The translations under genes and the position numbers were made by a program. A stretch of 64,000 nt of DNA. It comes from Rhipicephalus microplus (Eukaryota > Arthropoda > Arachnida > Ixodida > Ixodidae). The stretch covers positions 8,214,001 through 8,278,000 of the forward strand of contig NC_134701.1 of NCBI RefSeq assembly GCF_043290135.1. The letters are read 5' to 3'. The notes beneath the pieces are model-generated. The model saw nothing but the letters and a program-made list of their open reading frames with translations. It did no database searches and was not told where the DNA came from. Each line of letters begins with the position of its first letter. Position 1 is the first letter of the stretch. Positions 1-64,000 of the stretch are shown here, one piece after another.

Positions 1-54
1 ATAGCTCTGAAGAAATGTTCTGACGGTGGTGAGAGCGGAGCAGGACTGTCTCCG

Positions 55-66
55 TGGCGCAATTGG
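55..66 (+). promoter_or_regulatory. Pol III A box (internal promoter)
   Basis: TGGCGCAATTGG in the D arm of the first unit matches the Pol III type 2 A box pattern TGGCNNAGTGG except at the usual variable sites. The same box is intact in most units. Common variants are TGGCACAATTGG, TGGGGCAATTGG and TGGCGCCATTGG. Confidence 0.8.
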
Positions 67-99
67 CTAGCGCGATCGGCTGTTAACCGAAAGGTTGGA

Positions 100-110
100 G
101 GTTCGAGCCC
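100..110 (+). promoter_or_regulatory. Pol III B box (internal promoter)
   Basis: GGTTCGAGCCC in the T arm of the first unit matches the B box consensus GGTTCGANNCC that binds TFIIIC. Across the array the box occurs in three main states: this consensus, GGTTTGAGCCC (C56 to T) and GTTTCGAGCCC (G53 to T). The last two should bind TFIIIC less well and also break tRNA tertiary or stem contacts. Confidence 0.8.
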
Positions 111-130
111 ACCCGGTGGTGGTGCGGCGC

Positions 131-138
131 TTTTTTTT
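131..138 (+). terminator. Pol III T-run terminator
   Basis: Eight T residues lie about 10 bases after the end of the first tRNA body. A run of four or more T on the non-template strand ends Pol III transcription. Class A units usually have T7-T9 here and class B units T6. The implied precursor has a short 3' trailer. Confidence 0.8.
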
Positions 139-1967
139 CTTTGGGGCGATAGCTCTGAAGAAATGGTCTGACGGTGGTGAGAGTGGAGCACGACTGTCTC
201 CGTGGCGCTATTGGCTAGCGCGATCGGCTGTTAACCGAAAGGTCGGAGGTTCGAGCCCACCCGGTGGTGGTGCGGCGCTTTTTTTTTCTTTGGGCTGATA
301 GCTTGAAAGATATGTTCTAATGGTGGTGAGAGTGGAGCAGGACTGTCTCCGTGGCGCAATCGGCCAGCGCGTTCGGCTGTTAACCAAAAAGTTGGAGGTT
401 CGAGCCCTCCCGGGAGTGGTGTGTTGCTTTTTTCTTTGCTGCTGATAGCTTTGAAGATATGTTCTGATGGTGGTAAGAGTGGAGCACGACTGTCTCCGTG
501 GCGCAATTGGCTAGTGCGATCGGCTGTTAACCGAAACGTTGGAGCTTCGAGCCCACCCGGTGGTGGTGCGGCGCTTTTTTTTCTTTGGGCTGATAGCTTT
601 GAAGATATGTTTTGATGGTGGTGAGAGTGGAGCAGGACTGTCTCTGTGGCGCAATTGGCTAGCGCGATTGGCTGTTAACCGAAAGGTTGGAGGTTCGAGC
701 CCACCCGGTGGTGGTGCGGTGCTTTTTTTTCTTTGTGCTGATAGCTTTGAAGATATGTTCTGATGGGGTGAGAGTGGAGCAGGACTGTCTCCCTGGCGCA
801 ATTGGCTTGCGCAATCGGCTGTTAACCGAAAGGTTGGAGGTTCGAGCCCACCCGGTGGTGGTGCGGCGCTTTTTTTTCTTTGCGCTGATAGCTTTGAAGA
901 TATGTTCTGATGGTGGTGAGAGTGGAGCAAGACTGTCCCCGTGGCGCAATGGGCTCTCGTGATCGGCTGTTAACCGAAAGGTTGGAGTTTCGAGCCCTCC
1001 CGGGAGTGGTGTGTTGCTTTTTTCTTTGTGGTAATAGCTTTGAAGATATGTTCTGATGGTGGTGAGAGTGGAGCAGGACTGTCTCCGTGGCGCAATTGGC
1101 TAGCGCGATCGGCTGTTAACCGAAAGGTTGGAGGTTCGAGCCCACCCGGTAGTGGTGCGGCGCTTTTTTTTCTTTGCCCTGATAGCTTTGAAGAAATGTT
1201 CTGACGGTGGTGAGAGTGGAGCAGGACTTTCTCTGTGGCGCAATTGGCTAGCGCGATCGGCTGTTAACCGAAAGGTTGGAGGTTCGAGCCCACCCGGTGG
1301 TGGTGCGGCGCTTTTTTTTCTTTGGGGCGATAGCTCTGAAGAAATGGTCTGACGGTGGTGAAAGTGGTGCACGATTGTCTCCGTGGCGCAGTTGGCAAGT
1401 GCGATCGGCTGTTAATCAAAAGGTTGGAGGTTCGAGCCCACCAGGTGATGGTGTGGCACTTTTTTTCTTTGTGCTGATAGGTTTGAAGATATGTTCTGAT
1501 GGTGGTGAGAGTGGAGCAGGACTGTCTCCGTGGCGCAATTGGCTAGCGCGATTGGCTGTTAACCGAAAGGTTAAAGGTTCGAGCCCACCTGGTGGTGGTG
1601 CGGTGCTTTTTTTTCTTTGGGCTGATAGCTTTGAAGATATGTTCTGAAGGTGGTGAGAGTGGAGCAGGACTGTCTCCGTGGCACAATTGGCTTGCGCGAT
1701 CGGCTGTTAACCGAAAGGTTGGAGGTTCGAGCCCACCCAGTGGTGGTGCGGCGCTTTTTTTTCTTTGCGCTGATAGCTTTGAAGATATGTTCTGATGGTG
1801 GTGAGAGTGGAGGAAGACTGTCCCCGTGGCGCAATGGGCTAGCGCGATCGGCTGTTAACCGAAAGGTTGGAGGTTCGAGCCCACCCGGTGGTGGTGCGGC
1901 GCTTTTTTTTCTTTGCGCTGATAGCTTTGAAGATATGTTCTGATGGTGTTGAGAGTGGAGCAAGACT

Positions 1968-23886: not shown

Positions 23887-23960
23887 CTGCGGTGCTTTTT
23901 TTTCTTTGGGCTGATAGCTTTGAAGATATGTTCTGATGGTCGTGAAAGTGGAGCAGGACT

Positions 23961-23993
23961 GTCTCCGTGGCGCAATCGGCCCAACCGGTGGTG
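23961..23993 (+). pseudogene. truncated tRNA-Asn unit, 41-bp internal deletion
   Basis: The unit keeps GTCTCCGTGGCGCAATCGGC and then jumps to CCAACCGGTGG. Compared with the otherwise near-identical unit whose first anticodon base is 16324, 41 bases are missing, from the D loop to the T loop, including the whole anticodon arm and the B box. It is the only unit I found without an anticodon. Trailer and T run follow normally. Confidence 0.88.
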
Positions 23994-25981
23994 GTGCGGC
24001 GCTTTTTTTCTTTGGGGTGATAGCTCTGAAGAAATGTTCTGACGGTGGTGAGAGTGGAGCACGACTGCCTCCGTGGGGCAATTGGCTAGCGCGGTCGGCT
24101 GTTAACCGAAAGGTTGGAGGTTCGAGCCCACCCGGTGGTGGTGCGGCGCTTTTTTTTCTTTGGGCTGATAGTTCTGAAGAAATGTTTTGACGGTGGTGAG
24201 AGTGGAGCAGGACTGTCTCCGTGGCACAATTGACTAGCGCGATCGGCTGTTAATCGAAAAGTGGGAGGTTCGAGCTCTCCCGGGAGGGGTGTGTTGCTTT
24301 TTTCTTTGCGCTGATAGCTTTGAACGTATGTTCTTACGGTGGTGAGAGTGGAGCACGACTGTCTCCGTGGCGCAATAGGCTAGCGCGATCGGCTGTTAAC
24401 CGAAAGGTTTGAGGTTTGAGCTCACCCGGTGGTGGTGCGCGCTTTTTTTTCTGTGGGCTGATAGCTTTGATGATATGTTCTGATGGTGGTGAGAGTGAAG
24501 TTAGGACTTTCTCCGTGGCACAATTGGCTAGCGCGATCGGCTGTTAACCGAAAGGTTGGAGGTTCGAGCCCTCCCGGGTGGGGTGTGTTGCTTTTTTCTT
24601 TGCGCTGATAGCTTTGAAGATATGTTCTGATGGTGGTGAGCGTGGAGCACGATTGTCTCCGTGGCGCAATTGGCTAGCGCGATCGGCCGTTAACCGAAAG
24701 GTTGGAGGTTCGAGCCCACCCGGTGGTGTTTCGGCGCTTTTTTTTCTTTGGGCTGATAGCTTTGAAGATATGTTCTGATGGTGGTGAGAGTGAAGCAGGA
24801 CTGTCTCCGTGGCACAATTGGCTAGCGCGATTGGCTGTTAACCGAAAGGTTGGAGGTTCGAGCGCACCCGGTGTCGGTGCGGTGCTTTTTTTTCTTTGTG
24901 CTGATAGCTTTGAAGATATGTTCTGATGGTGGTGAGAGTAGAGCAGGACTGTCTCCATGGCGCGATTTGCTAGCGCGATCGGCTGTTAACCGAAAGGTTG
25001 GAGTTTCGAGCCCACCCGGTGGTGGAGCGGCGCTTTTTTTCTTTGGGCTGAAACCTCTGAAGAAATGTTCTGACGGTGGTGAGAGTGGAGCAGGACTGTC
25101 TCCGTGGCGCAATTGGCAAGCGTGATCGGCTGTTAACCAAAAGGTTCGAGGTTCGAGCCCACGCGGTGGTGGTGCGGCGCTTTTTTTCTTTTGGGCGATA
25201 GCTCTGAAGAAATGGTCTGACGGTGGTGAGAGTGGAGCACGACTGTCTCCGTGGCGCAGTTGGCTAGCGCGATCGACTGTTAACCGAAAGGTTGGAGGTT
25301 CGAGCCCACCCGGTGATGGTGTGGTGCTGATTTTTCTTTGTGCTGATAGCTTTGAAGATATGTTCTGATGGTGGGGAGAGTGGAGCAGGGCTGTCTCCGT
25401 GGACCATTGGCTAACGCGATTGGCTGTTAACCGAAAGGTTGGAGATTCGAGCCCACCCGGTGGTGGTGCGGTGCTTTTTTTTTCTTTGGGCTGATAGCTT
25501 TGAAGATATGTTCTGATGGTGGTGAGAGTGGAGCAGGACTGTCTCCGTGGCGCAATTGGCTTGCGCGATCGGCTGTTAACCGAAAGTTTGGAGGTTCGAG
25601 CCCACCCGGTGGTGGTGCGGCGCTTTTTTTTCTTTGCGCTGATAGCTTTGAAGATATGTTCTGATGGTGGTGAGAGTGGAGCAAGACTGTCTCCGTGGCG
25701 CAATGGGCTAGCGCGATCGGCTGTTAACCGAAACATTGGAGTTTCGAGCCCTCCCGGGAGTGGTGTGTTGCTTTTTTTTGCGCTGATAGCTTTGAAGATA
25801 TGTTCTGATGGTGGTGAGAGTGGAGCAGGACTGTCTCCGTGGCGCAATTGGCTAGCACGATCGGCTGTTAACCGAAAGGTTGGAGGTTTGAGCCCACCCG
25901 GTGGTGGTGCGGCGCTTTTTTTTTCTTTGGGGTGATAGCTCTGAATAAATGTTCTGACGGCGGTGAGAGTGGAGCACAACT

Positions 25982-29438: not shown

Positions 29439-30685
29439 GTGCGGTGCTTTTTTTTCTTTGGGCTGATAGCTTTGAAGATATGTTCTGATGGTGGTGAGAG
29501 TGGAGCAGGACTGTCTCCGTGGCGCAATTGGCTAGCGCGATCGGCTGTTAACCAAAAAGTCGGAGGTTTGAGCCCACCCGGTGGTGGTGTGGCGCTTTTT
29601 TTTGGGGCTGATAGCTTTGAAGATATGTTCTGGTGGTGGTGAGAGTGGAGCTGGACTGTCTCCGTGGCGCAATTGGCTTGCGCGATCGGCTGTTAACCGA
29701 AATGTTGAGGGTTCAGCCCACCAGGTGGTGGTGCGGCGCTTTTTTTTCTTCGTGCTGATAGCTTTGAAGATATGTTCTGATGGTGGTGAGAGTAGAGCAA
29801 GACTGTCTCCGTGACGCAATGGGCTAGTGCGATCGGCTGTTAACCGAAAGGTTGGAGTTTCGAGCGCTCCCGGGAGTGGTGTGTTGCTTTTTTCTTTGCG
29901 CTGATAGCTTTGAAGATATGTTCTGATGGTGGTGAGAGTGGAGCAGGACTGTCTCCGTGGCGCAATTGGCTAGCGCGATCGGCTGTTAACCGAAAGATTG
30001 GAGGTTCGAGCCCACGCGGTGGTGGTGCGGCGCTTTTTCTTCTTTGGGCTGATAGCTTTGAAGGTATGTTCTGGCGGTGGTGAGAGTGGAGCAGGACTGT
30101 CTCCGTGGCGCAATTGGCTAGCGCGATCGGCTGTTAACCGAAAAGTCGGAGGTTTGAGCCCACCCGGTGGTGGTGTGGCGCTTTTTTTTCTTTGGGCTGA
30201 TAGCCTTGAAGATATGTTCTGATGTTGGTGAGAGGTTAGCTGGACTGTCTCCTTGGCGCAATTGGCTTGCGCGATCGGATGTTAACCGAAAGGTTGAGGG
30301 TTTAGCCCACCCGGTGGTGGTGCGGCGCTTTTTTTTCTTCGCGCTGATAGCTTTGAAGATATGTTCTGATGGTGTGAGAGTGGAGCACGACTGTCTCCGC
30401 GGCGCAATTGGCTAGCGCGATCGGCTGTTAACCGAAAAGTTGGAGGTTCGAGCCCACCCGGTGGTGGTGCGGCGCTTTTTTTTCTTCGGGCTGATAGCTT
30501 TGAAGATATGTTCTGATGGAGGTGAGAGGGGAGCAAGACTGTCTCCGTGGCGTATTGGGCTAGCGCGATCGGCTGTTAACCGAAAGGTTGGAGTTTCGAG
30601 CTCTCCCGGGAGGGGTGTGTGGCTTTTTTTTTGCGCTGATAGCTTTGAAGGTATGTTCTGACGGTGGTGAGAGCCGAGCACGACT

Positions 30686-30759
30686 GTCTCCGTGGCGCAA
30701 TTGGTTAGCGCGATCGGCTGTTAACCGAAAGGTTGGAGGTTCGAGCCCTCCCGGTGGTG
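30686..30759 (+). tRNA. most canonical tRNA-Asn(GTT) candidate
   Basis: This A/B recombinant has the best fold of the class I examined. The D loop has GGTTA, as in standard animal tRNA-Asn, where most units have GGCTA. The T stem GGAGG/CCTCC is fully paired. The B box is the consensus GGTTCGAGCCC and the A box is intact. The acceptor GTCTCCG/CGGTGGT has six pairs and one U-U. Remaining defects are A27-A43 and the U-U at 4:69. T7 follows about 10 bases downstream. It is the unit I would test first for a functional tRNA. Confidence 0.8.
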
Positions 30760-30832
30760 GTGCGGCGCTTTTTTTCTGTGGGCTGATAGCTTTGAAGATA
30801 TGTTCTGATGGTGGTGAGAGTGGAGCAGGACT

Positions 30833-30906
30833 GTCTCCGTGGCGCAATTGGCTAGCGCGATCGGCTTTTAACCGAAAGATTGGAGGTTCGAGCCCACGCG
30901 GTGGTG
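30833..30906 (+). tRNA. tRNA-Asn-derived unit with anticodon TTT, separate lineage
   Basis: Loop CTTTTAA in a class A-like body (CCACGCGGTGGTGG, consensus B-box start GGTTCGAGCCC). Sequence around it (GAAAGATTGGAGG, T run written TTTTTCTTC) differs from the 12749 group, so G34 to T arose separately here. The closely related unit at 29985 keeps GTT. Confidence 0.76.
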
Positions 30907-32299
30907 GTGCGGCGCTTTTTCTTCTTTGGGCTGATAGCTTTGAAGGTATGTTCTGACGGTGGTGAGAGTGGAGCAGGACTGTCTCCGTGGCGCAATCGGC
31001 TAGCGCGATCGGCTGTTAACCGAAAAGTCGGAGGTTTGAGCCCACCCGGTGGTGGTGTGGCGCTTTTTTTTCTTTGGGCTGATAGCCTTGAAGATATGTT
31101 CCGATGGTGGTGAGAGTGGAGCTGGACTGTCTCCGTGGCGCTATTGGCTTGCGCGATGGGCTGTTAACCGAAAGGTTGAGGGTTCAGCCCACCCGGTGGT
31201 GGTGCGGCGCTTTTTTTTTCTTCGCGCTGATAGCTTTGAAGATATGTTCTGATGGTGGTGAGAGTAGAGCAAGACTGTCTCCGTGGCGCAATGGGCTAGT
31301 GGGATCGGCTGTTAACGAAAAGGTTGGAATATCGAGCCCTCCCGGGAGTGGTGTGTTGCTTTTTTCTTTGCGCTGATAGCTCTGAAGATATGTTTTGATT
31401 GTGGAGAGAGTGGAGTAGGACTATCTCCGTGGCGCAATTGGCTAGCGCGATTTCGTTGTTAACCGAAAGGTTGGAGGTTTGAGCCCACCCGGTGGTGGTG
31501 CGGCGCTTTTTTTTCTTTGCGCTGATAGCTTTGAAGATATATTCTGATGGTGGTGAGAGTGGAGCAAGACTGTCTCAGTGGCGCAATTGGCTAGCGCGAT
31601 CGGCTGTTAACCGAAAGGTTGGAGTTTCGAGCCATCCCGGGAGTGGTGTGTTGCTTTTTTCTTTGCGGTAATAGCTTTGAAGATATGTTCTGATGGTGGT
31701 GAGTGTGGAGCAGGACAGTCTTCGTGGCGCAATTGGCTAGCGCGATCGGCTGTTATCCGAAAGGTTGGAGGTTTGAGCCCACCCGGTGGTGGTGCGGCGC
31801 TTTTTTTTCTTTGGGGTGATAGCTCTGAAGAAATGGTCTGACGGTGGTGAGAGTGGACTGCCTCTGTAGCGCAATTGGCTAGCGCGATCGGCTGTTAACC
31901 GAAAGGTTGGAGGTTCGAGCCCACCCGGTGGTGGTGCGGCGCTTTTTTTTTGGTCTGATAGCTCTGAAGGAATGTTCTGATGGTGGTGAGAGGGGAGCAA
32001 GACTGTCTCCGTGGCGCAATGGGCTAACGCGATCGGCTGTTAACCGAAAGGATGGAGTTTCGAGCTCTCCCGGGAGGGGTGTGTTGCTTTTTTTCTTTGC
32101 GCTGATAGCTTTGAAGGTATGTTCTGACGGTGGTGAGAGTGGAGCACGACTGTCTCCGTGGCGCAATGGGCTAGCGCGATCGGCTGTTAATCGAAAGGTT
32201 AAAGGTTCGAGCCCACCCGGTGGTGGTGCGGCGCTTTTTTTTCTGTGGGCTGATAGCTTTGAAGATATGTTCTGATGGTGGTGAGAGTGAAGCAGGACT

Positions 32300-32373
32300 G
32301 TCTCCGTGGCGCAATTGGCTAGCGCGATCGGCTGGTAACCGAAAGGTTGGAGGTTTGAGCCCACCCGGTGGTG
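32300..32373 (+). tRNA. tRNA-Asn-derived unit with anticodon GGT (Thr ACC/ACT type)
   Basis: Loop CTGGTAA carries T35 to G, giving GGT. The duplicate at 56145 (first anticodon base) reads GTT, so the change is private to this copy and recent, or a sequencing error. B box is GGTTTGAGCCC. Confidence 0.7.
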
Positions 32374-32443
32374 GTGCGGCGCTTTTTTTTGGGGTGATAG
32401 CTCTGAATAAATGTTCTGACGGCGGTGAGAGTGGAGCACAACT

Positions 32444-35315
32444 GTCTCCGTGGAGCAATTGGCTAGCGCGGTCGGCTGTTAACCGAAAGGTTGGAGGTTC
32501 GAGCCCACCCGGTGGTGGTGCGGCGCTTTTTTTTCTTTGGGCTGATAGCTCTGAAGAAATGTTCTGACGGTGGTGAGAGTAGAGCAGGACTGTCTCCGTG
32601 GCGCAATTGGCTAGCGCGATCGGCTGTTAACCGAAAGGTTGGAGGTTCGAGCTCTCCCGGGAGGGGTGTGTTGCTTTTTTCTTTGCGCTGATAGCTTTGA
32701 AGGTATGTTCTTACGGTGGTGAGAGTGGAGCACGACTGTCTCCGTGGCGCAATAGGCTAGCGCGATCGGCTGTTAACCGAAAGTTTGGAGGTTTGAGCCC
32801 ACCCGGTGGTGGTGCGGCGCTTTTTTTTTCTTTGGGCTGATAGCTTTGAAGATATGTTCTGACGGTGGTGAGAGTGGAGCAGGGCTCTCTCCGTGGCGCA
32901 ATTGGCTAGCGCGATTTTGTTGTTAACCGAAAAGTTGGAGGTATGAGCCCACCCAGTGGTGGTGCGGCGCTTTTTTTCTTTGCGCTGATAGCTTTGAAGA
33001 TATGTTCTGATGGTGGTGAGAGTGGAGCAAGACTGTCTCCGTGGCGCAATGGGCTAGCGCGATCGGCTGTTAACCGAAACGTTGGAGTTTCGAGCCCTCC
33101 CGGGAGTGGTGTGTTGCTTTTTTCTTTGCGCTGATAGCTTTGAAGATATGTTCTGATGGTGGTGAGAGTGGAGCAGGACTGTCTCTGGGGCGCAACTGGC
33201 TAGCGCGATCGGCAGTTAACCGAAAGATTGGAGGTTTGAGCCCACCCGGTGGTGGTGCGGCGCTTTTTTTTCTTTGGGGTGATAGCTCTGAATAAATGTT
33301 CTGACGGCGGTGAGAGTGGAGCACAACTGTCTCCGTGGGGCAATGGGCTAGCGCGGTCGGCTGTTAACCGAAAGGTTGGAGGTTCGAGCCCACCCGGTGG
33401 TGGTGCGGCGCTTTTTTTTCTTTGGGCTGATAGCTCTGAAGAAATGTTCTGACGGTGGTGAGAGTGGAGCAGGACTGTCTCCGTGGCACAATTGGCTAGC
33501 GCGATCGGCTGTTAACCGAAAAGTGGGAGGTTCGAGCTCTCCCGGGAGGGGTGTGTTGCTTTTTTCTTTGCGCTGATAGCTTTGAACGTATGTTCTTACG
33601 GTGGTGAGAGTGGAGCACGACTGTCTCCGTGGCGCAATAGGCTAGCGCGATCGGCTGTTAACCGAAAGGTTGGAGGTTTGAGCCCACCCGGTGGTGGTGC
33701 GGCGCTTTTTTTTCTGTGGGCTGATAGCTTTGATGATATGTTTTGATGGTGGTGAGATTGAAGCAGGACTGTCTCCGTGGCACAAGTGGCTAGCGCGATC
33801 GGCTGTTAACCGAAAGGTTGGAGGTTCGAGCCCTCCCAGGTGGGGTGTGTTGCTTTTTTCTTTGCGCTGATAGCTTTGAAGATATGTTCTGATGGTGGTG
33901 AGCGTGGAGCACGATTGTCTCCGTGGCGCAATTGGCTAGCGCGATCGGCCGTTAACCGAAAGGTTGGAGGTTCGAGCCCACCCGGTGGTGGTTCGGCGCT
34001 TTTTTTTCTTTGGGCTTATAGCTTTGAAGATATGTTCTGATGGTGGTGAGAGTGAAGCAGGACTGTCTCCGTGGCGCAATTGGCTAGCGCGATTGGCTGT
34101 TAACCGAAACGTTGGAGGTTCGAGCCCACCCGGTGGCTCTGCGGTGCTTTTTTTTCTTTGTGCTGATAGATTTGAAGATATGTTCTGATGGTGGTGAGAG
34201 TGGAGCAGGACTGTCTCCGTGGTGCAATTGGCTTGCGCGATCGGCTGTTAACCGAAAGGTTGGAGGTTCGAGCCCATCCGGTAGTGGTGCGGCACTTTTT
34301 TTTCTTTGCGCTGATAGCTTTGAAGATATGTTTCTGATGGTGGTGAGAGTGGAGCAAGACTGTCCCCGTGGCGCAATGGGCTAGCACGATCGGCTGTTAA
34401 CCGAAAGGTTGGAGTTTCGAGCCCTCCCGGGAGTGGTGTGTTGCTTTTTTCTTTGCACTGATAGTTTGAAGATATGTTCTGATGGTGGTGAGAGTGGAGC
34501 AGGACTGTCTCCGTGGCGCAATTGGCTAGCTCGATCGGCTGTTAACCGAAAGGTTGGAGGTTCGAGCCCACCCGGTGGTGGTGCGGCGCTTTGTTTTCTT
34601 TGTGGTAATAGCTTTGAAGATATGTTCTGATGGTGGTGAGAGTAGAGCAGGACTGTCTCCATGGCGCGATTTGCTAGCGCGATCGGCTGTTAACCGAAAG
34701 GTTGGAGTTTCGAGCCCACCCGGTGGTGCAGCGGCGCTTTTTTTCTTTGGGCTGATAGCTCTGAAGAAATGTTTTGACGGTGGTGAGAGTGGAGCAGGAC
34801 TGTCTCCGTGGCGCAATTGGCAAGCGTGATCGGCAGTTAACCAAAAGGTTCGAGGTTCGAGCCCACGCGGTGGTGGTGCGGCGCTTTTTTTTTCTTTGGG
34901 GCGATAGCTCTGAAGAAATGGTCTGACGGTGGTGAGATTGGAGCACGACTGTCTCCGTGGCGCAGTTGGCTAGCGCGATCGACTGTTAACCGAAAGTTTG
35001 GAGGTTCGAGCCCACCCGGTGGTGGTGTGGCGCTTTTTTTTTGGGCTGAGAGCTTTGAAGATATGTTCTGACGGTGGTGAGAGTGGAGCAGGCCTGTCTC
35101 CGTGGCACAATTGGCTAGCGCGATCGGCTGTTAACCGAAAAGTTGGAGGTTCGAGCCCTCCCGGGTGGGGTGTGTTGCTTATTTCTTTGCGCTATTAGCT
35201 TTTAAGATATGTTCTGATAGTGGTGAGCGTGGAGCACGATTGTCTCCGTGGCGCAATTGGCTAGCGCGATCGGCTGTTAACCGAAAGGTTGGAGTTTCGA
35301 GCCCTCCCGGGAGTG
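32444..35315 (+). tRNA. 20 tRNA-Asn(GTT)-like units
   Basis: First anticodon base at 32478, 32626, 32772, 32922, 33069, 33215, 33363, 33511, 33657, 33805, 33951, 34099, 34247, 34396, 34541, 34689, 34836, 34985, 35130 and 35276. Class B units are 32626, 33069, 33511, 33805, 34396, 35130 and 35276. Unit 32922 has the anticodon-arm insertion (ATTTTG form). Units 33215 and 34836 have A33; 33951 has C33; 34985 has A31. Unit 35130 lacks a usable T run. Confidence 0.85.
35170..35190 (+). other. unit trailer with terminator lost
   Basis: After class B unit 35130 the expected T6 is broken to TTATTTCTTT, with no more than three T in a row. Pol III would be expected to read through into unit 35276, whose T6 lies about 150 bases on. 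Copies with the same break follow units 58941 and 61591; unit 41299 has TCATTTCTTT. Confidence 0.75.
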
Positions 35316-35387
35316 GTGTGTTGCTTTTTTCTTTGCGGTAATAGCTTTGAAGATATGTTCTGATGGTGGTGAGAGTGGAGCAGGACA

Positions 35388-38245
35388 GTCTTCATGGCGC
35401 AATTGGCTAGCGCGATCGGCTGTTATCCGAAAGGTTGGAGGTTTGAGCCCACCCGGTGGTGGTGCGGCGCTTTTTTTTCTTTGGGGTGATAGCTCTGAAG
35501 AAATGGTCTGACGGTGGTGAGAGTGGACTGTCTCTGTAGCGCAATTGGCTAGCGCGATCGGCTGTTAACCGAAATGTTGAGGGTTCAGCCCACCCGGTGG
35601 TGGTGCGGCGATTTTTTTTGGTCTGATAGCTCTGAAGGAATGTTCTGATGGTGGTGAGAGGGGAGCAAGACTGTCTCCGTGGCGCAATGGGCTAACGCGA
35701 TCGGCTGTTAACCGAAAGGTTGGAGTTTCGAGCTCTCCCGGGAGGGGTGTGTTGCTTTTTTTCTTTGCGCTGATAGCTTTGAAGATATGTTCTGATGGTG
35801 GTGAGAGTGGAGCAGGACTGTCTCCGTGGCGCAATTGGCTAGCGCGATCGGCTGTTAACCGAAAGGTTGGAGGTTTGAGCCCACCCGGTGGTGGTGCGGC
35901 GCTTTTTTTTGGGGTGATAGCTCTGAATAAATGTTCTGACGGCGGTGAGAGTGGAGCACAACTGTCTCCGTGGAGCAATTGGCTAGCGCGGGCGGCTGTT
36001 AACCGAAAGGTTGGAGGTTCGAGCCCACCCGGTGGTGGTGCGGCGCTTTTTTTTCTGTGGGCTGATAGCTCTGAAGAAATGTTCTGACGGTGGTGAGAGT
36101 GGAGCACGACTGTCTCCGTGGCACAATTGGCTAGCGCGATCGGCTGTTAACCGAAAAGTGGGAGGTTCGAGCCCACCCGGTGATGGTGTGGCGCTTTTTT
36201 TTTCTTTGGGCTGAGAGCTTTGAAGATATGTTCTGACGGTGGTGAGAGTGGAGCAGGACTCTCTCCGGTGCGCAATTGGCTAGCGCGATTTCGTTGTTAA
36301 CCGAAAAGTTGGAGGTTTGAGCCCACCCGGTGGTGGTGCGGCGCTTTTTTTTCTTTGCGCTGATAGCTTTGAAGATATGTTCTGATGGTGGTGAGAGTGA
36401 AGCAAGACTGTCTTCGTGGCGCAATGAGCTAGCGCGATCGGCTGTTAACCGAAACATTGGAGTTTCGAGCCCTCCCGGGAGTGGTTTGTTGCTTTTTTCT
36501 TTGCGCTGATAGCTTTGAAGATATGTTCTTATGGTGGTGAGAGTGGAGCAGGACTGTCTCCGTGGCGCAATTGGCTAGCGCGATCGGCTGTTAACCGAAA
36601 GGTTGGAGGTTTGAGCCCACCCGGTGGTGGTGCGGCGCTTTTTTTCTTTGGGGTGATAGCTCTGAATAAATGTTCTGACGGCGGTGAGAGTGGAGCACAA
36701 CCTTCTCCGTGGGGAATTGGCTAGCGCGGTCGGCTGTTAACCGAAAGGTTGGAGGTTCGAGCCCACCCGGTGGTGGTGCGGCGCTTTTTTTTCTTTGGGC
36801 TGATAGCTCTGAAGAAATGTTCTGACGGTGGTGAGAGTGGAGCAGGACTGTCTCCGTGGCACAATTGGCTAGCGCGATCGGCTGTTAACCGAAAAGTGGG
36901 AGGTTCGAGCTCTTCCGGGATGGGTGTGTTGCTTTTTTCTTTGCGCTGATAGCTTTCAACGTATGTACTTATGGTGGTGAGAGTAGAGCACGACTGTCTC
37001 CGTGGCGCAATAGGCTAGCGCGATCGGCTGTTAACCGAAAGGTTGGAGGTTTGAGCCCTCCCGGTGGTGGTGCGGCGCTTTTTTTTCTGTGGGCTGATAG
37101 CTTTGATGATATGTTCTGATGGTGGTGAGAGTGGAGCAGGACTGTCCCCGTGGCGCCATTGGCTAGCGCGATCGGCTGTTAACCAAAAAGTTGGAGGTTC
37201 GAGCCCTCCCGGGTGGGGTGTGTTGCTTCTTTCTTTGCGCTATTAGCTTTGAAGATATGTTCTGATGGTGGTGAGAGTAGAGCACGACTGTCTCCGTAGC
37301 GCAGTTGGCTAGCGCTATCGGCTGTTAACCAAAAGTTTGGAGGTTCGAGCCCACCCGGTGGTGGTGCGGCGCTTTTTTTTGGGCTGATAGCTTTGAAGAT
37401 ATGTTCTGACGGTGGTGAGAGTGGAGCAGGACTGTCTCCGTGGCGCAATTGGCTTGCGCGATTGGCTGTTAACCGAAAGGTTGGAGGTTGGAGCCCACCC
37501 GGTGGTGGTGCGTTGCTTTTTTTCTTTGGGCTGATAGCTTTGAAGATATGTTCTGATGGTGGTGAGAGTGGAGCAGGATTGTCTCCGTGGCGCAATTGGC
37601 TAGCGCGATCGGCTGTTAACCAAAAGGTTGGAGTTTCGAGCCCACGCGGTGGTGGTGCGGCGCTCTTTTTTCTTTGGGCTGATAGCTTTGAAGATATGTT
37701 CTGATGGTGGCGAGAGTGGAGCAGGACTGTCTCCGTGGCGCAATTGGCTAGCGTGATCAGCTGTTAACTGAAAAGCTGGAGGTTCGAGCCCACCGGGTGG
37801 TGGTGCGGCGCCTTTTTTTCTTTGGGCTGATAGCTTTGAAGATATGTTATGATGGTGGTGAGAGTGGAGCAGGACTGTCTCCGTGGCGCAATAGGCTAGC
37901 GCGATCGGCTGTTAACCGAAAGGATGGAGTTTCGAGCCCACCCGGTGGTGGTGCGGCGCTTTTTTTTCTTTGGGCTGATAGCTTTGAAGATATGTTCTGA
38001 TGGTGGTGAGAGTAGAGCAGGACTGTCTCCGTGGCGCAATTGGCTAGCGCGATCGGCTGTTAACCGAAAGGTTGGAGTTTCGAGCCCTCCCGGGAGTGGT
38101 GTGTGGCTTCTTTTCTTTGCGCTGATAACTTTGAAGATATGTTCTGATGGTGGTGAGAGTAGAGCACGACTGTCTCCGTGGCACAGTTCGTTAGCGCGAT
38201 CGGCTGTTAACCGAAAGTTTGGAGGTTCGAGCCAACCCGGTGGTG
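35388..38245 (+). tRNA. 20 tRNA-Asn(GTT)-like units
   Basis: First anticodon base at 35422, 35564, 35707, 35854, 35998, 36146, 36296, 36444, 36590, 36736, 36884, 37030, 37178, 37324, 37468, 37615, 37763, 37911, 38059 and 38206. Class B units are 35707, 36444, 36884, 37178 and 38059. Unit 37030 is an A/B recombinant (CCTCC T stem with CGGTGGT acceptor). Unit 35422 has T38. Unit 36296 has the anticodon-arm insertion and an acceptor ending CCGG before TGCGC. Unit 37178 lacks a T run; 38059 has only T4. Confidence 0.85.
37218..37238 (+). other. unit trailer with terminator lost
   Basis: After class B unit 37178 the T run is interrupted to TTCTTTCTTT. The same form follows units 43347 and 63344. 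The next T run of adequate length is after the following unit, so a two-tRNA transcript is predicted. Confidence 0.73.
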
Positions 38246-41194: not shown

Positions 41195-41264
41195 GTGTGG
41201 CGCTTTTTTTTGGGCTGAGAGCTTTGAAGATATGTTCTGACGGTGGTGAGAGTGGAGCAGGCCT

Positions 41265-54498: not shown

Positions 54499-54572
54499 GT
54501 CTCCGTGGCGCAATTGGTTAGCGCGATCGGCTGTTAACCGAAAGGTTGGAGGTTCGAGCCCTCCCGGTGGTG
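54499..54572 (+). tRNA. most canonical tRNA-Asn(GTT) candidate, third copy
   Basis: Duplicate of the unit at 30686 within the large segment shared between about 30-35 kb and 53.8-59.1 kb. I see the same body, trailer and T7 run. Defects are again A27-A43 and U-U at 4:69. Confidence 0.8.
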
Positions 54573-54645
54573 GTGCGGCGCTTTTTTTCTGTGGGCTGAT
54601 AGCTTTGAAGATATGTTCTGATGGTGGTGAGAGTGGAGCAGGACT

Positions 54646-54719
54646 GTCTCCGTGGCGCAATTGGCTAGCGCGATCGGCTTTTAACCGAAAGATTGGAGGT
54701 TCGAGCCCACGCGGTGGTG
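54646..54719 (+). tRNA. tRNA-Asn-derived unit with anticodon TTT, duplicate of 30833
   Basis: Copy of the unit at 30833 in the 23.8-kb-offset duplicate. The anticodon change, T arm and T5-C-TTC run are all kept, so the variant predates that duplication. Confidence 0.76.
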
Positions 54720-55962: not shown

Positions 55963-58834
55963 GTCTCCGTGGCGCAATGGGCTAGCGCGATCGGCTGTTA
56001 ATCGAAAGGTTAAAGGTTCGAGCCCACCCGGTGGTGGTGCGGCGCTTTTTTTTCTGTGGGCTGATAGCTTTGAAGATATGTTCTGATGGTGGTGAGAGTG
56101 AAGCAGGACTGTCTCCGTGGCGCAATTGGCTAGCGCGATCGGCTGTTAACCGAAAGGTTGGAGGTTTGAGCCCACCCGGTGGTGGTGCGGCGCTTTTTTT
56201 TGGGGTGATAGCTCTGAATAAATGTTCTGACGGCGGTGAGAGTGGAGCACAACTGTCTCCGTGGAGCAATTGGCTAGCGCGGTCGGCTGTTAACCGAAAG
56301 GTTGGAGGTTCGAGCCCACCCGGTGGTGGTGCGGCGCTTTTTTTTCTTTGGGCTGATAGCTCTGAAGAAATGTTCTGACGGTGGTGAGAGTAGAGCAGGA
56401 CTGTCTCCGTGGCGCAATTGGCTAGCGCGATCGGCTGTTAACCGAAAGGTTGGAGGTTCGAGCTCTCCCGGGAGGGGTGTGTTGCTTTTTTCTTTGCGCT
56501 GATAGCTTTGAAGGTATGTTCTTACGGTGGTGAGAGTGGAGCACGACTGTCTCCGTGGCGCAATAGGCTAGCGCGATCGGCTGTTAACCGAAAGTTTGGA
56601 GGTTTGAGCCCACCCGGTGGTGGTGCGGCGCTTTTTTTTTCTTTGGGCTGATAGCTTTGAAGATATGTTCTGACGGTGGTGAGAGTGGAGCAGGGCTCTC
56701 TCCGTGGCGCAATTGGCTAGCGCGATTTTGTTGTTAACCGAAAAGTTGGAGGTATGAGCCCACCCAGTGGTGGTGCGGCGCTTTTTTTCTTTGCGCTGAT
56801 AGCTTTGAAGATATGTTCTGATGGTGGTGAGAGTGGAGCAAGACTGTCTCCGTGGCGCAATGGGCTAGCGCGATCGGCTGTTAACCAAAACGTTGGAGTT
56901 TCGAGCCCTCCCGGGAGTGGTGTGTTGCTTTTTTCTTTGCGCTGATAGCTTTGAAGATATGTTCTGATGGTGGTGAGAGTGGAGCAGGACTGTCTCTGGG
57001 GCGCAAATGGCTAGCGCGATCGGCTGTTAACCGAAAGATTGGAGGTTTGAGCCCACCCGGTGGTGGTGCGGCGCTTTTTTTTCTTTGGGGTGATAGCTCT
57101 GAATAAATGTTCTGACGGCGGTGAGAGTGGAGCACAACTGTCTCCGTGGGGCAATGGGCTAGCGCGGTCGGCTGTTAACCGAAAGGTTGGAGGTTCGAGC
57201 CCACCCGGTGGTGGTGCGGCGCTTTTTTTTCTTTGGGCTGATAGCTCTGAAGAAATGTTCTGACGGTGGTGAGAGTGGAGCAGGACTGTCTCCGTGGCAC
57301 AATTGGCTAGCGCGATCGGCTGTTAACCGAAAAGTGGGAGGTTCGAGCTCTCCCGGGAGGGGTGTGTTGCTTTTTTCTTTGCGCTGATAGCTTTGAACGT
57401 ATGTTCTTACGGTGGTGAGAGTGGAGCACGACTGTCTCCGTGGCGCAATAGGCTAGCGCGATCGGCTGTTAACCGAAAGGTTGGAGGTTTGAGCCCACCC
57501 GGTGGTGGTGCGGCGCTTTTTTTTCTGTGGGCTGATAGCTTTGATGATATGTTTTGATGGTGGTGAGAGTGAAGCAGGACTGTCTCCGTGGCACAAGTGG
57601 CTAGCGCGATCGGCTGTTAACCGAAAGGTTGGAGGTTCGAGCCCTCCCAGGTGGGCTGTGTTGCTTTTTTCTTTGCGCTGATAGCTTTGAAGATATGTTC
57701 TGATGGTGGTGAGCGTGGAGCACGATTGTCTCCGTGGCGCAATTGGCTAGCGCGATCGGCCGTTAACCGAAAGGTTGGAGGTTCGAGCCCACCCGGTGGT
57801 GGTTCGGCGCTTTTTTTTCTTTGGGCTTATAGCTTTGAAGATATGTTCTGATGGTGGTGAGAGTGAAGCAGGACTGTCTCCGTGGCGCAATTGGCTAGCG
57901 CGATTGGCTGTTAACCGAAACGTTGGAGGTTCGAGCCCACCCGGTGGCGCTGCGGTGCTTTTTTTTCTTTGTGCTGATAGATTTGAAGATATGTTCTGAT
58001 GGTGGTGAGAGTGGAGCAGGACTGTCTCCGTGGTGCAATTGGCTTGCGCGATCGGCTGTTAACCGAAAGGTTGGAGGTTCGAGCCCATCCGGTAGTGGTG
58101 CGGCACTTTTTTTTCTTTGCGCTGATAGCTTTGAAGATATGTTCTGATGGTGGTGAGAGTGGAGCAAGACTGTCCCCGTGGCGCAATGGGCTAGCACGAT
58201 CGGCTGTTAACCGAAAGGTTGGAGTTTCGAGCCCTCCCGGGAGTGGTGTGTTGCTTTTTTCTTTGCACTGATAGTTTGAAGATATGTTCTGATGGTGGTG
58301 AGAGTGGAGCAGGACTGTCTCCGTGGCGCAATTGGCTAGCTCGATCGGCTGTTAACCGAAAGGTTGGAGGTTCGAGCCCACCCGGTGGTGGTGCGGCGCT
58401 TTGTTTTCTTTGTGGTAATAGCTTTGAAGATATGTTCTGATGGTGGTGAGAGTAGAGCAGGACTGTCTCCATGGCGCGATTTGCTAGCGCGATCGGCTGT
58501 TAACCGAAAGGTTGGAGTTTCGAGCCCACCCGGTGGTGCAGCGGCGCTTTTTTTCTTTGGGCTGATAGCTCTGAAGAAATGTTTTGACGGTGGTGAGAGT
58601 GGAGCAGGACTGTCTCCGTGGCGCAATTGGCAAGCGTGATCGGCTGTTAACCAAAAGGTTCGAGGTTCGAGCCCACGCGGTGGTGGTGCGGCGCTTTTTT
58701 TTTCTTTGGGGCGATAGCTCTGAAGAAATGGTCTGACGGTGGTGAGATTGGAGCACGACTGTCTCCGTGGCGCAGTTGGCTAGCGCGATCGACTGTTAAC
58801 CCAAAGTTTGGAGGTTCGAGCCCACCCGGTGGTG
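55963..58834 (+). tRNA. 20 tRNA-Asn(GTT)-like units
   Basis: First anticodon base at 55997, 56145, 56289, 56437, 56583, 56733, 56880, 57026, 57174, 57322, 57468, 57616, 57762, 57910, 58058, 58206, 58351, 58499, 58646 and 58795. Class B units are 56437, 56880, 57322, 57616 and 58206. Unit 56733 has the ATTTTG insertion, 57762 has C33 and 58795 has A31. Unit 56145 keeps GTT where its duplicate 32334 reads GGT. Confidence 0.85.
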
Positions 58835-59086
58835 GTGTGGCGCTTTTTTTTTTGGGCTGAGAGCTTTGAAGATATGTTCTGACGGTGGTGAGAGTGGAGC
58901 AGGCCTGTCTCCGTGGCACAATTGGCTAGCGCGATCGGCTGTTAACCGAAAAGTTGGAGGTTCGAGCCCTCCCGGGTGGGGTGTGTTGCTTATTTCTTTG
59001 CGCTATTAGCTTTTAAGATATGTTCTGATAGTGGTGAGCGTGGAGCACGATTGTCTCCGTGGCGCAATTGGCTAGCGCGATCGGCT
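56437..59086 (+). repeat. first copy of a 2650-bp tandem higher-order repeat
   Basis: Eighteen units, 56437-58941, recur immediately downstream at constant offset 2650. I saw no base differences in the stretches I compared. This is the cleanest and probably youngest duplication in the window. Confidence 0.9.
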
Positions 59087-61776
59087 GTTAACCGAAAGGT
59101 TGGAGGTTCGAGCTCTCCCGGGAGGGGTGTGTTGCTTTTTTCTTTGCGCTGATAGCTTTGAAGGTATGTTCTTACGGTGGTGAGAGTGGAGCACGACTGT
59201 CTCCGTGGCGCAATAGGCTAGCGCGATCGGCTGTTAACCGAAAGTTTGGAGGTTTGAGCCCACCCGGTGGTGGTGCGGCGCTTTTTTTTTCTTTGGGCTG
59301 ATAGCTTTGAAGATATGTTCTGACGGTGGTGAGAGTGGAGCAGGGCTCTCTCCGTGGCGCAATTGGCTAGCGCGATTTTGTTGTTAACCGAAAAGTTGGA
59401 GGTATGAGCCCACCCAGTGGTGGTGCGGCGCTTTTTTTCTTTGCGCTGATAGCTTTGAAGATATGTTCTGATGGTGGTGAGAGTGGAGCAAGACTGTCTC
59501 CGTGGCGCAATGGGCTAGCGCGATCGGCTGTTAACCAAAACGTTGGAGTTTCGAGCCCTCCCGGGAGTGGTGTGTTGCTTTTTTCTTTGCGCTGATAGCT
59601 TTGAAGATATGTTCTGATGGTGGTGAGAGTGGAGCAGGACTGTCTCTGGGGCGCAAATGGCTAGCGCGATCGGCTGTTAACCGAAAGATTGGAGGTTTGA
59701 GCCCACCCGGTGGTGGTGCGGCGCTTTTTTTTCTTTGGGGTGATAGCTCTGAATAAATGTTCTGACGGCGGTGAGAGTGGAGCACAACTGTCTCCGTGGG
59801 GCAATGGGCTAGCGCGGTCGGCTGTTAACCGAAAGGTTGGAGGTTCGAGCCCACCCGGTGGTGGTGCGGCGCTTTTTTTTCTTTGGGCTGATAGCTCTGA
59901 AGAAATGTTCTGACGGTGGTGAGAGTGGAGCAGGACTGTCTCCGTGGCACAATTGGCTAGCGCGATCGGCTGTTAACCGAAAAGTGGGAGGTTCGAGCTC
60001 TCCCGGGAGGGGTGTGTTGCTTTTTTCTTTGCGCTGATAGCTTTGAACGTATGTTCTTACGGTGGTGAGAGTGGAGCACGACTGTCTCCGTGGCGCAATA
60101 GGCTAGCGCGATCGGCTGTTAACCGAAAGGTTGGAGGTTTGAGCCCACCCGGTGGTGGTGCGGCGCTTTTTTTTCTGTGGGCTGATAGCTTTGATGATAT
60201 GTTTTGATGGTGGTGAGAGTGAAGCAGGACTGTCTCCGTGGCACAAGTGGCTAGCGCGATCGGCTGTTAACCGAAAGGTTGGAGGTTCGAGCCCTCCCAG
60301 GTGGGCTGTGTTGCTTTTTTCTTTGCGCTGATAGCTTTGAAGATATGTTCTGATGGTGGTGAGCGTGGAGCACGATTGTCTCCGTGGCGCAATTGGCTAG
60401 CGCGATCGGCCGTTAACCGAAAGGTTGGAGGTTCGAGCCCACCCGGTGGTGGTTCGGCGCTTTTTTTTCTTTGGGCTTATAGCTTTGAAGATATGTTCTG
60501 ATGGTGGTGAGAGTGAAGCAGGACTGTCTCCGTGGCGCAATTGGCTAGCGCGATTGGCTGTTAACCGAAACGTTGGAGGTTCGAGCCCACCCGGTGGCGC
60601 TGCGGTGCTTTTTTTTCTTTGTGCTGATAGATTTGAAGATATGTTCTGATGGTGGTGAGAGTGGAGCAGGACTGTCTCCGTGGTGCAATTGGCTTGCGCG
60701 ATCGGCTGTTAACCGAAAGGTTGGAGGTTCGAGCCCATCCGGTAGTGGTGCGGCACTTTTTTTTCTTTGCGCTGATAGCTTTGAAGATATGTTCTGATGG
60801 TGGTGAGAGTGGAGCAAGACTGTCCCCGTGGCGCAATGGGCTAGCACGATCGGCTGTTAACCGAAAGGTTGGAGTTTCGAGCCCTCCCGGGAGTGGTGTG
60901 TTGCTTTTTTCTTTGCACTGATAGTTTGAAGATATGTTCTGATGGTGGTGAGAGTGGAGCAGGACTGTCTCCGTGGCGCAATTGGCTAGCTCGATCGGCT
61001 GTTAACCGAAAGGTTGGAGGTTCGAGCCCACCCGGTGGTGGTGCGGCGCTTTGTTTTCTTTGTGGTAATAGCTTTGAAGATATGTTCTGATGGTGGTGAG
61101 AGTAGAGCAGGACTGTCTCCATGGCGCGATTTGCTAGCGCGATCGGCTGTTAACCGAAAGGTTGGAGTTTCGAGCCCACCCGGTGGTGCAGCGGCGCTTT
61201 TTTTCTTTGGGCTGATAGCTCTGAAGAAATGTTTTGACGGTGGTGAGAGTGGAGCAGGACTGTCTCCGTGGCGCAATTGGCAAGCGTGATCGGCTGTTAA
61301 CCAAAAGGTTCGAGGTTCGAGCCCACGCGGTGGTGGTGCGGCGCTTTTTTTTTCTTTGGGGCGATAGCTCTGAAGAAATGGTCTGACGGTGGTGAGATTG
61401 GAGCACGACTGTCTCCGTGGCGCAGTTGGCTAGCGCGATCGACTGTTAACCCAAAGTTTGGAGGTTCGAGCCCACCCGGTGGTGGTGTGGCGCTTTTTTT
61501 TTTGGGCTGAGAGCTTTGAAGATATGTTCTGACGGTGGTGAGAGTGGAGCAGGCCTGTCTCCGTGGCACAATTGGCTAGCGCGATCGGCTGTTAACCGAA
61601 AAGTTGGAGGTTCGAGCCCTCCCGGGTGGGGTGTGTTGCTTATTTCTTTGCGCTATTAGCTTTTAAGATATGTTCTGATAGTGGTGAGCGTGGAGCACGA
61701 TTGTCTCCGTGGCGCAATTGGCTAGCGCGATCGGCTGTTAACCGAAAGGTTGGAGTTTCGAGCCCTCCCGGGAGTG
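58907..61776 (+). tRNA. 20 tRNA-Asn(GTT)-like units
   Basis: First anticodon base at 58941, 59087, 59233, 59383, 59530, 59676, 59824, 59972, 60118, 60266, 60412, 60560, 60708, 60856, 61001, 61149, 61296, 61445, 61591 and 61737. Class B units are 58941, 59087, 59530, 59972, 60266, 60856, 61591 and 61737. Unit 59383 has the insertion, 60412 has C33 and 61445 has A31. Units 58941 and 61591 lack a T run. Unit 59087 is chimeric and marks the duplication joint. Confidence 0.85.
59087..61736 (+). repeat. second copy of the 2650-bp tandem higher-order repeat
   Basis: Copy of 56437-59086. Its first unit is a hybrid: the spacer and 5' half match unit 35276 (CACGATTGTCTCCG), and the 3' half matches unit 56437 (GCTCTCCCGGGAGGGG). 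The exchange point therefore lies inside the tRNA body. Unit 61737 resumes the 35276 pattern in full. Confidence 0.9.
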
Positions 61777-63350
61777 GTGTGTTGCTTTTTTCTTTGCGGT
61801 AATAGCTTTGAAGATATGTTCTGATGGTGGTGAGAGTGGAGCAGGACAGTCTTCATGGCGCAATTGGCTAGCGCGATCGGCTGTTATCCGAAAGGTTGGA
61901 GGTTTGAGCCCACCCGGTGGTGGTGCGGCGCTTTTTTTTCTTTGGGGTGATAGCTCTGAAGAAATGGTCTGACGGTGGTGAGAGTGGACTGTCTCTGTAG
62001 CGCAATTGGCTAGCGCGATCGGCTGTTAACCGAAATGTTGAGGGTTCAGCCCACCCGGTGGTGGTGCGGCGATTTTTTTTGGTCTGATAGCTCTGAAGGA
62101 ATGTTCTGATGGTGGTGAGAGGGGAGCAAGACTGTCTCCGTGGCGCAATGGGCTAACGCGATCGGCTGTTAACCGAAAGGTTGGAGTTTCGAGCTCTCCC
62201 GGGAGGGGTGTGTTGCTTTTTTTCTTTGCGCTGATAGCTTTGAAGATATGTTCTGATGGTGGTGAGAGTGGAGCAGGACTGTCTCCGTGGCGCAATTGGC
62301 TAGCGCGATCGGCTGTTAACCGAAAGGTTGGAGGTTTGAGCCCACCCGGTGGTGGTGCGGCGCTTTTTTTTGGGGTGATAGCTCTGAATAAATGTTCTGA
62401 CGGCGGTGAGAGTGGAGCACAACTGTCTCCGTGGAGCAATTGGCTAGCGCGGGCGGCTGTTAACCGAAAGGTTGGAGGTTCGAGCCCACCCGGTGGTGGT
62501 GCGGCGCTTTTTTTCTGTGGGCTGATAGCTCTGAAGAAATGTTCTGACGGTGGTGAGAGTGGAGCACGACTGTCTCCGTGGCACAATTGGCTAGCGCGAT
62601 CGGCTGTTAACCGAAAAGTGGGAGGTTCGAGCCCACCCGGTGATGGTGTGGCGCTTTTTTTTTCTTTGGGCTGAGAGCTTTGAAGATATGTTGTGACGGT
62701 GGTGAGAGTGGAGCAGGACTCTCTCCGGTGCGCAATTGGCTAGCGCGATTTCGTTGTTAACCGAAAAGTTGGAGGTTTGAGCCCACCCGGTGGTGGTGCG
62801 GCGCTTTTTTTTCTTTGCGCTGATAGCTTTGAAGATATGTTCTGATGGTGGTGAGAGTGAAGCAAGACTGTCTTCGTGGCGCAATGAGCTAGCGCGATCG
62901 GCTGTTAACCGAAACATTGGAGTTTCGAGCCCTCCCGGGAGTGGTTTGTTGCTTTTTTCTTTGCGCTGATAGCTTTGAAGATATGTTCTTATGGTGGTGA
63001 GAGTGGAGCAGGACTGTCTCCGTGGCGCAATTGGCTAGCGCGATCGGCTGTTAACCGAAAGGTTGGAAGTTTGAGCCCACCCGGTGGTGGTGCGGCGCTT
63101 TTTTTCTTTGGGGTGATAGCTCTGAATAAATGTTCTGACGGCGGTGAGAGTGGAGCACAACCTTCTCCGTGGGGAATTGGCTAGCGTGGTCGGCTGTTAA
63201 CCGAAAGGTTGGAGGTTCGAGCCCACCCGGTGGTGGTGCGGCGCTTTTTTTTCTTTGGGCTGATAGCTCTGAAGAAATGTTCTGACGGTGGTGAGAGTGG
63301 AGCAGGACTGTCTCCGTGGCACAATTGGCTAGCGCGATCGGCTGTTAACC
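61737..63350 (+). repeat. copy of 35276-36890, offset 26460-26461 bp
   Basis: Units 61737-63344 follow the order of 35276-36884, including T38 unit 61883, the CCACCCGG shortened T-arm unit 62025 and the GGGCGGC unit 62459. At unit 63344 the 3' half switches to the pattern of unit 43347, and units 63490-63927 then follow 43493-43930 at offset 19997. Confidence 0.86.
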
Positions 63351-63966
63351 GAAAAGTGGGAGGTTCGAGCCCTCCCGGGTGGGGTGTGTTGCTTCTTTCT
63401 TTGCGCTATTAGCTTTGAAGATATGTTCTGATGGTGGTGAGCGTGGAGCACGATTGTCTCCGTGGCGCAAATGGCTAGCGCGATCGGCCGTTAACCGAAA
63501 GTTTGGTGTTTCGAGCCCTCCCGGGAGTGGTGTGTTTCTTTTTTCTTTGCGCTGATAGCTTTGAATATATGTTCTGATGGTGGTGAGAGTAGAGCACGAC
63601 TGTCTCCGTAGCGCAGTTGGCTAGCGCTATCGGCTGTTAACCAAAAGTTTGGAGGTTCGAGCCCACCCGGTGGTGGTGCGGCGCTTTTTTTTGGGCTGAT
63701 AGCTTTGAAGATATGTTCTGACGGTGGTGAGAGTGGAGCAGGACTGTCTCCGTGGCGCAATTGGCTTGCGCGATTGGCTGTTAACCGAAAGGTTGGAGGT
63801 TCGAGCCCACCCGGTGGTGGTGCGTTGCTTTTTTTCTTTGGGCTGATAGCTTTGAAGATATGTTCTGATGGTGGTGAGAGTGGAGCAGGATTGTCTCCGT
63901 GGCGCAATTGGCTAGCGCGATCGGCTGTTAACCAAAAGGTTGGAGTTTCGAGCCCACGCGGTGGTG
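61849..63966 (+). tRNA. 15 tRNA-Asn(GTT)-like units at the window end
   Basis: First anticodon base at 61883, 62025, 62168, 62315, 62459, 62606, 62756, 62904, 63050, 63196, 63344, 63490, 63636, 63780 and 63927. Class B units are 62168, 62904, 63344 and 63490. Unit 61883 has T38, 62756 has the insertion and 63490 has C33. Unit 63344 is chimeric and lacks a T run. After 63966 the last trailer and T run and part of the next spacer continue to the window edge. Confidence 0.85.
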
Positions 63967-64000
63967 GTGCGGCGCTCTTTTTTCTTTGGGCTGATAGCTT

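What the first reader, a model, noticed from the sequence alone, without database searches (positions are those of the whole stretch)
1..64000. A 64-kb window made only of 435 tandem tRNA-Asn-like genes
Seen: 435 same-strand units at about 148 bp with no other content, open at both ends. Known: animal and plant genomes carry tRNA clusters, some in tandem, but usually mixed isotypes, longer units or far fewer copies. Inference: this is either an amplified Asn tRNA supply or a tRNA-derived satellite. A single-isotype array this dense is a strong candidate for an undescribed satellite or a TFIIIC-binding chromatin domain.
Basis: partly seen in the sequence, partly recalled or inferred. Interest (0 to 1): 0.88.

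Follow-up and report, generated by a model that had tools for sequence, protein, structure and literature searches.

The report
Satellite DNA made from tRNA pseudogenes
This stretch is one long run of short repeated units, each a decayed copy of an asparagine tRNA gene with its own flanks, which looks like satellite DNA rather than a large supply of working tRNA genes.

Summary
The window is one head-to-tail, single-strand array: 434 near-full units (425 of them 144-149 bp, mode 148), one 106-bp unit and 7 bp of a next unit; nothing else is present and both ends are open. The reading as an amplified Asn tRNA supply is not supported. Counted at consensus columns, 0 of 434 units form all 21 tRNA stem pairs (best 19); the consensus has a mispair in three of four stems; pairing is no better than after shuffling partners. 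The best copy scores 55.7 bits and the consensus sequence 45.2, against 70.8 and 69.1 for two intact phage/plasmid tRNA-Asn. Substitutions between recently duplicated blocks fall as often on the tRNA part as on the spacer. 329 of 434 units lie in recurring near-identical blocks. Best reading: a eukaryotic satellite derived from a tRNA-Asn gene, part of its copies with intact Pol III boxes and nearly all with a T-run. Kin are known: newt PolIII/TAN, Xenopus OAX, Rana/polIII (PMC10702118); single-gene tRNA arrays in an oomycete (PMC9584435). TFIIIC binding, transcription, genome copy number and species could not be tested.

The parts
1..64000 (+). tandem array of tRNA-Asn-derived satellite units, modal length 148 bp, open at both ends
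1..148 (+). first unit, as an example of the monomer
48..121 (+). tRNA-Asn-like part of the first unit, equal to the array consensus (anticodon GTT, discriminator G), with one mispair each in acceptor, anticodon and T stems
55..66 (+). A-box-like stretch of the first unit (338 of 434 units match a loose A-box pattern)
   Evidence: box pattern recalled
100..110 (+). B-box-like stretch of the first unit (204 of 434 units match GGTTCGANNCC exactly)
   Evidence: box pattern recalled
131..138 (+). T-run downstream of the tRNA part of the first unit, Pol III terminator-like (427 of 434 units have 4 or more T in a row)
23914..24019 (+). 106-bp unit with an internal deletion of 42 bp in the tRNA part
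29904..35194 (+). 36-unit block, mean unit identity 99.5% to 53717-59005
32840..37242 (+). 30-unit block, mean unit identity 99.6% to 39012-43411
56402..61755 (+). perfect tandem duplication, 2704 identical bases at offset 2650, the longest exact repeat in the window

Best explanation
The window is a stretch of satellite DNA, most likely of a eukaryote, whose monomer is one tRNA-Asn gene with a 5' flank, a trailer and a T-run. Shown: the tandem order, the loss of tRNA pairing, the even spread of substitutions over tRNA part and spacer, and recurring blocks of different divergence that keep the unit phase. Inferred: a nuclear tRNA-Asn gene was duplicated, lost the ability to make a normal tRNA, and was amplified and homogenised by unequal crossing-over or similar exchange. 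Its likely role is structural or none; the intact A and B boxes in part of the copies may still draw TFIIIC or allow weak Pol III transcription, which is untested.
For: 0 of 434 units form all 21 pairs, range 14-19; acceptor pair 4 is paired in 27% of units, the first anticodon-stem pair in 1%, the third T-stem pair in 28%. Mean pairs 16.970 against 16.959 (sd 0.015, largest 17.002, 300 shuffles) when 3' letters are dealt out anew. Mean column entropy of tRNA part and spacer is equal (difference 0.0008). In 174 unit pairs from 14 blocks that I chose: 195 substitutions, 1.311 per column in the tRNA part, 1.277 in the 5' spacer, 1.700 in the 3' spacer (p = 0.88 treating changes as independent). 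In all 36 blocks: 365 unit pairs, 529 substitutions, 3.73 per column in the tRNA part and 3.40 in the spacer (pairs overlap). 329 of 434 units lie in blocks of five or more units that recur at 97% or more, one weaker unit allowed. Controls: tRNA-Asn of a Gordonia phage and a mycobacterial plasmid score 70.8 and 69.1 bits without a mispair; best array copy 55.7, consensus sequence 45.2.
Against: Anticodon GTT is kept in 424 of 434 units, discriminator G in 423, both in 413. The anticodon loop is 6th least variable of 148 circular shifts and the B box 22nd. In all 36 blocks the B box (2.82) and anticodon loop (2.86) change somewhat less per column than the spacer (3.40), while the A box changes more (4.50); in my 14 chosen blocks the B box was not lower (1.455 against 1.277). 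Alleles seen once or twice are somewhat fewer in the tRNA part (38 in 74 columns) than in the spacer (41 in 57), p = 0.14; at other cut-offs p is 0.65-0.76. T-runs of 4 or more are kept in 427 of 434. The intact-tRNA controls are bacterial, not eukaryotic. I could not see this genome's other tRNA-Asn genes.
Confidence: 0.85

Rival explanations
1. A functional amplified tRNA-Asn supply, like the tRNA arrays of oomycetes or Entamoeba.
For: Anticodon GTT in 424 of 434, discriminator G in 423 of 434, T-run in 427 of 434; 332 Rfam matches above gathering score; anticodon loop among the least variable stretches.
Against: 0 of 434 units form all 21 pairs, pairing no better than shuffled, tRNA part changes as fast as spacer in fresh duplications; a mean of 10.0 substitutions from consensus per unit and no unit equal to it.
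Confidence: 0.04
2. A Pol III/TFIIIC chromatin domain: the degenerate copies are kept for their A and B boxes, which bind TFIIIC and organise or insulate chromatin, or make a non-tRNA transcript.
For: 204 of 434 units with an exact B box, 338 with a loose A box, 148 with both, all on one strand; B box somewhat less changed than spacer over all 36 blocks (2.82 against 3.40 per column); the newt PolIII/TAN repeat is transcribed in vitro (PMC10702118, passage).
Against: The A box changes more than spacer (4.50 against 3.40) and ranks 122 of 148 shifts in variability; 230 of 434 units lack an exact B box.
Confidence: 0.08
3. Assembly artefact: a shorter array wrongly expanded by the assembler.
For: Perfect 2704-base repeat at offset 2650; open ends; read depth not available.
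Against: 333 distinct aligned units of 434; the three longest recurring blocks differ by 0.3-0.5%, and at seven other offsets tested the longest exact run is 1020 bases or less, whereas a copying artefact would give exact copies.
Confidence: 0.03

Closest known systems
Amphibian Pol III satellites: newt PolIII/TAN, Xenopus OAX (satellite I), Rana/polIII (PMC10702118, passages seen)
   Same: Tandem repeats with a tRNA-like segment; the newt repeat can be transcribed in vitro.
   Different: Hydromantes Hy/polIII is named there too, but its tRNA origin is called questionable.
Oomycete single-gene tRNA arrays, e.g. 271 tRNA-Cys in a 513-nt unit in Phytophthora infestans (PMC9584435, passages seen)
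   Same: Hundreds of same-isotype copies head to tail; growth by unequal crossing-over suggested there.
   Different: Monomeric arrays on a single chromosome are described there as nearly identical repeats (dimeric and trimeric ones as more diverse); here mean pairwise identity is 0.877 and no unit has full tRNA pairing.
Entamoeba tRNA arrays (PMC2652664, passages seen)
   Same: Long tandem arrays of tRNA units.
   Different: Units with 1-5 tRNA types, short tandem repeats between genes in E. histolytica, and no clear evidence of pseudogene copies according to that paper.
Xenopus oocyte-type tandem tRNA genes (PMC11500080, a commentary, passages seen)
   Same: Tandemly arrayed tRNA genes in an animal.
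   Different: Described as activated, Pol III-transcribed genes; unit structure not given in the passages.
Amplified 5S rDNA of pikes (PMC5437419, passages seen)
   Same: A Pol III gene amplified into very large arrays with higher-order structure.
   Different: Most pike copies keep the conserved RNA structure; here no unit does.
SINE-derived satellites of squamates (PMC10702118, passages seen)
   Same: Tandem repeats from tRNA-related sequence.
   Different: Derived there from known SINEs; here no SINE library was available, and 1-900 had no Rfam match besides tRNA.

Membership tests
satellite DNA | long head-to-tail array of one short unit | tested here: met
   434 near-full units plus one short unit fill 64 kb
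satellite DNA | recurrent in-array duplication (higher-order blocks) | tested here: met
   329 of 434 units in recurring blocks of five or more units
satellite DNA | no gene-like constraint | tested here: met
   weak exceptions at anticodon loop and B box are told in the Against line
satellite DNA | heterochromatic or centromeric place and high genome copy number | not tested
   own genome not reached: searches did not complete
functional tRNA-Asn gene | intact cloverleaf pairing | tested here: not met
   0 of 434 with 21 pairs; best 19
functional tRNA-Asn gene | GTT anticodon and discriminator G (AsnRS identity, recalled) | tested here: met
   413 of 434
functional tRNA-Asn gene | tRNA part more conserved than flanks | tested here: not met
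Pol III-type satellite (as newt PolIII/TAN) | A and B boxes and T-run | tested here: inconclusive
   A box 338, exact B box 204, both 148 of 434; T-run 427 of 434
Pol III-type satellite (as newt PolIII/TAN) | transcription by Pol III | not testable with these tools
   no expression or ChIP data
SINE-derived satellite | homology of the unit to a SINE body or tail | tested here: inconclusive
   no Rfam match besides tRNA in 1-900; no SINE library held

The most novel reading that the evidence does not exclude
A whole-tRNA-gene satellite whose hundreds of regularly spaced, same-strand A and B boxes act as a dense TFIIIC/Pol III landing zone, about one per nucleosome-sized unit, giving a chromatin boundary, a TFIIIC sink or a centromere-type domain built from a tRNA gene.
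Probability: 0.1. Interest if true: 0.75.

Novelty: new member of a known kind. Interest (0 to 1): 0.36.

Why it matters
It is a clear case of a complete tRNA gene, flanks and T-run included, turned into a satellite monomer of about nucleosome size (the nucleosome length is recalled). It also warns that gene finders can count such copies as tRNA genes (281 ARAGORN calls, 332 Rfam matches here). If TFIIIC still binds it, it would be a natural test of how a dense array of Pol III sites shapes chromatin.

Tried and rejected
Functional tRNA array: rejected on missing pairs, pairing no better than shuffled, and even substitution rate. Another RNA gene in the spacer: in 1-900 no Rfam match at E up to 1 besides six tRNA matches. 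Relatives elsewhere: spacer motifs found nothing in viral contigs or genome contigs; tRNA-body motifs nothing in either; these were exact-match scans. The first 1500 bases matched 11 phage records and 1 plasmid record, over stretches of 54-69 bases of the record; 9 of the 11 phage records have an annotated tRNA-Asn under the match. One regular higher-order period: unit similarity by lag shows none that dominates, though exact repeats recur at 2650, about 6170 and about 23800 bp. Literature: ten searches (two of them listed no paper) and passages of six papers showed me no tRNA-Asn satellite; a seventh paper has no mention of tRNA in its text. Most results were seen only as listings, so absence in print is not shown.

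Full report
Observation. The window was segmented by aligning the 148-base unit step by step. It gives 434 near-full units (148 bp 181 times, 146 bp 104, 147 bp 67, 149 bp 52, 144 bp 15, 145 bp 6; the other nine are 137-139, 150, 152 and one printed as 124 because its alignment ended early), plus a 106-bp unit at 23914-24019 and seven bases of a next unit at the right end. TRF gives the same array. ARAGORN tRNA genes, all on the + strand. Rfam finds 332 matches above gathering score; the 150 listed are all tRNA on the + strand.

Anatomy of the unit. About 47 bp of 5' flank, a 74-nt tRNA-Asn-like part, 9 nt of trailer, a T-run (6-9 T in 398 of 434 units) and about 10 bp. The anticodon is GTT in 424 of 434 units and the discriminator G in 423. 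That is an inference; the species is not known.

No unit has full tRNA pairing. I counted standard pairs at the 21 stem positions of the consensus columns (9 insertion columns, used by 70 of 434 units, were dropped). 0 of 434 units form all 21; the range is 14-19. Single stems are complete in some units: acceptor in 1, D stem in 306, anticodon stem in 3, T stem in 60. Three pairs are broken in the consensus itself: acceptor pair 4 (paired in 27% of units), first anticodon-stem pair (1%) and third T-stem pair (28%). Mean pairs per unit is 16.970, and 16.959 (sd 0.015) in 300 shuffles of the 3' partners, so there is no sign of covariation. The best copies score 55.7 bits and the consensus sequence 45.2. 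Two tRNA-Asn genes found by the similarity search, in a Gordonia phage and a mycobacterial plasmid, score 70.8 and 69.1 with no mispair; they are bacterial-type controls.

Little or no constraint on the tRNA part is visible. Mean entropy of tRNA part and spacer columns is the same (difference 0.0008). Between near-identical duplicated units I first compared 174 pairs in 14 blocks that I chose from the 30 printed: 195 substitutions, 97 in the 74 tRNA columns, 77 in the 57 spacer columns and 21 in trailer and T-run; p = 0.88 if changes are independent. With all 36 blocks (365 overlapping unit pairs, 529 substitutions) the tRNA part has 3.73 per column and the spacer 3.40; A box 4.50, B box 2.82, anticodon loop 2.86. 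Results against: the anticodon loop is 6th least variable of 148 shifts and the B box 22nd; both are somewhat low over all blocks; alleles seen once or twice are fewer in the tRNA part (38 in 74 columns against 41 in 57, p = 0.14), though not at other cut-offs (p 0.65-0.76). In partial explanation, A columns vary least throughout the unit, and the anticodon loop has no shortage of rare alleles (6 in 7 columns).

How the array grows. Of 434 units, 329 lie in blocks of five or more units that recur at 97% identity or more, one weaker unit allowed (36 blocks). The three longest are 36 units (29904-35194 and 53717-59005, 99.5%), 30 units (32840-37242 and 39012-43411, 99.6%) and 28 units (32691-36802 and 59152-63262, 99.7%). 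One repeat is perfect over 2704 bases at offset 2650 (56402 and 59052). No single higher-order period dominates. The unit phase holds at 431 of 433 junctions without any gap, as expected from exchange between homologous units; unequal crossing-over is inferred, not shown. The CpG ratio is 1.01 overall, although at three of the ten consensus CpG sites TG is common (79, 141 and 136 of 434 units).

Function. A loose A box is present in 338, an exact B box in 204 and both in 148 of 434 units (patterns recalled); a run of four or more T in 427. Weak Pol III transcription or TFIIIC binding is therefore possible but untested.

Comparison with what is known. Tandem repeats with tRNA-like parts are described in newt, Xenopus and Rana, and SINE-derived satellites in squamates (PMC10702118, passages). 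Single-isotype tRNA arrays of hundreds of copies are described in Phytophthora infestans (PMC9584435, passages), tRNA arrays in Entamoeba (PMC2652664, passages), tandem tRNA genes in Xenopus (PMC11500080, passages) and amplified 5S genes in pike (PMC5437419, passages). A bivalve retroelement paper gave only short tRNA likenesses (PMC6934838, passages). The present array belongs with the tRNA-derived satellites; what sets it apart is the completeness of the tRNA gene in so short a unit.

Limits. Copy number, chromosomal place, transcription and conservation in other species remain open.

Noticed in passing
window 1-64000, unit columns 6-23 and 110-127: Variants in the trailer of one unit stay linked with the 5' flank of the next unit (a B-type trailer is followed by the common 5' type in 117 of 118 cases), while variants on the two sides of the tRNA part within a unit are unlinked (rare 5' type in 97 of 316 A and 37 of 118 B units); mean linkage is lowest around the anticodon stem-loop. 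Exchange may break more often inside the tRNA part, but distance is a confounder.
   Followed up: partly
window 31819, 35489, 41658, 55631, 61950: Five units of 137-139 bp share a 6-bp deletion upstream of the tRNA part and a changed T-run, marking a minor unit lineage.
   Followed up: partly
window 56402-61755: Perfect tandem repeat at offset 2650; either very recent or a local assembly over-expansion.
   Followed up: no
L002 599-671: The Mycobacterium ulcerans plasmid record holds a tRNA-Asn-like gene (69.1 bits) not listed in its gene table, which lists no RNA genes in this collection.
   Followed up: no
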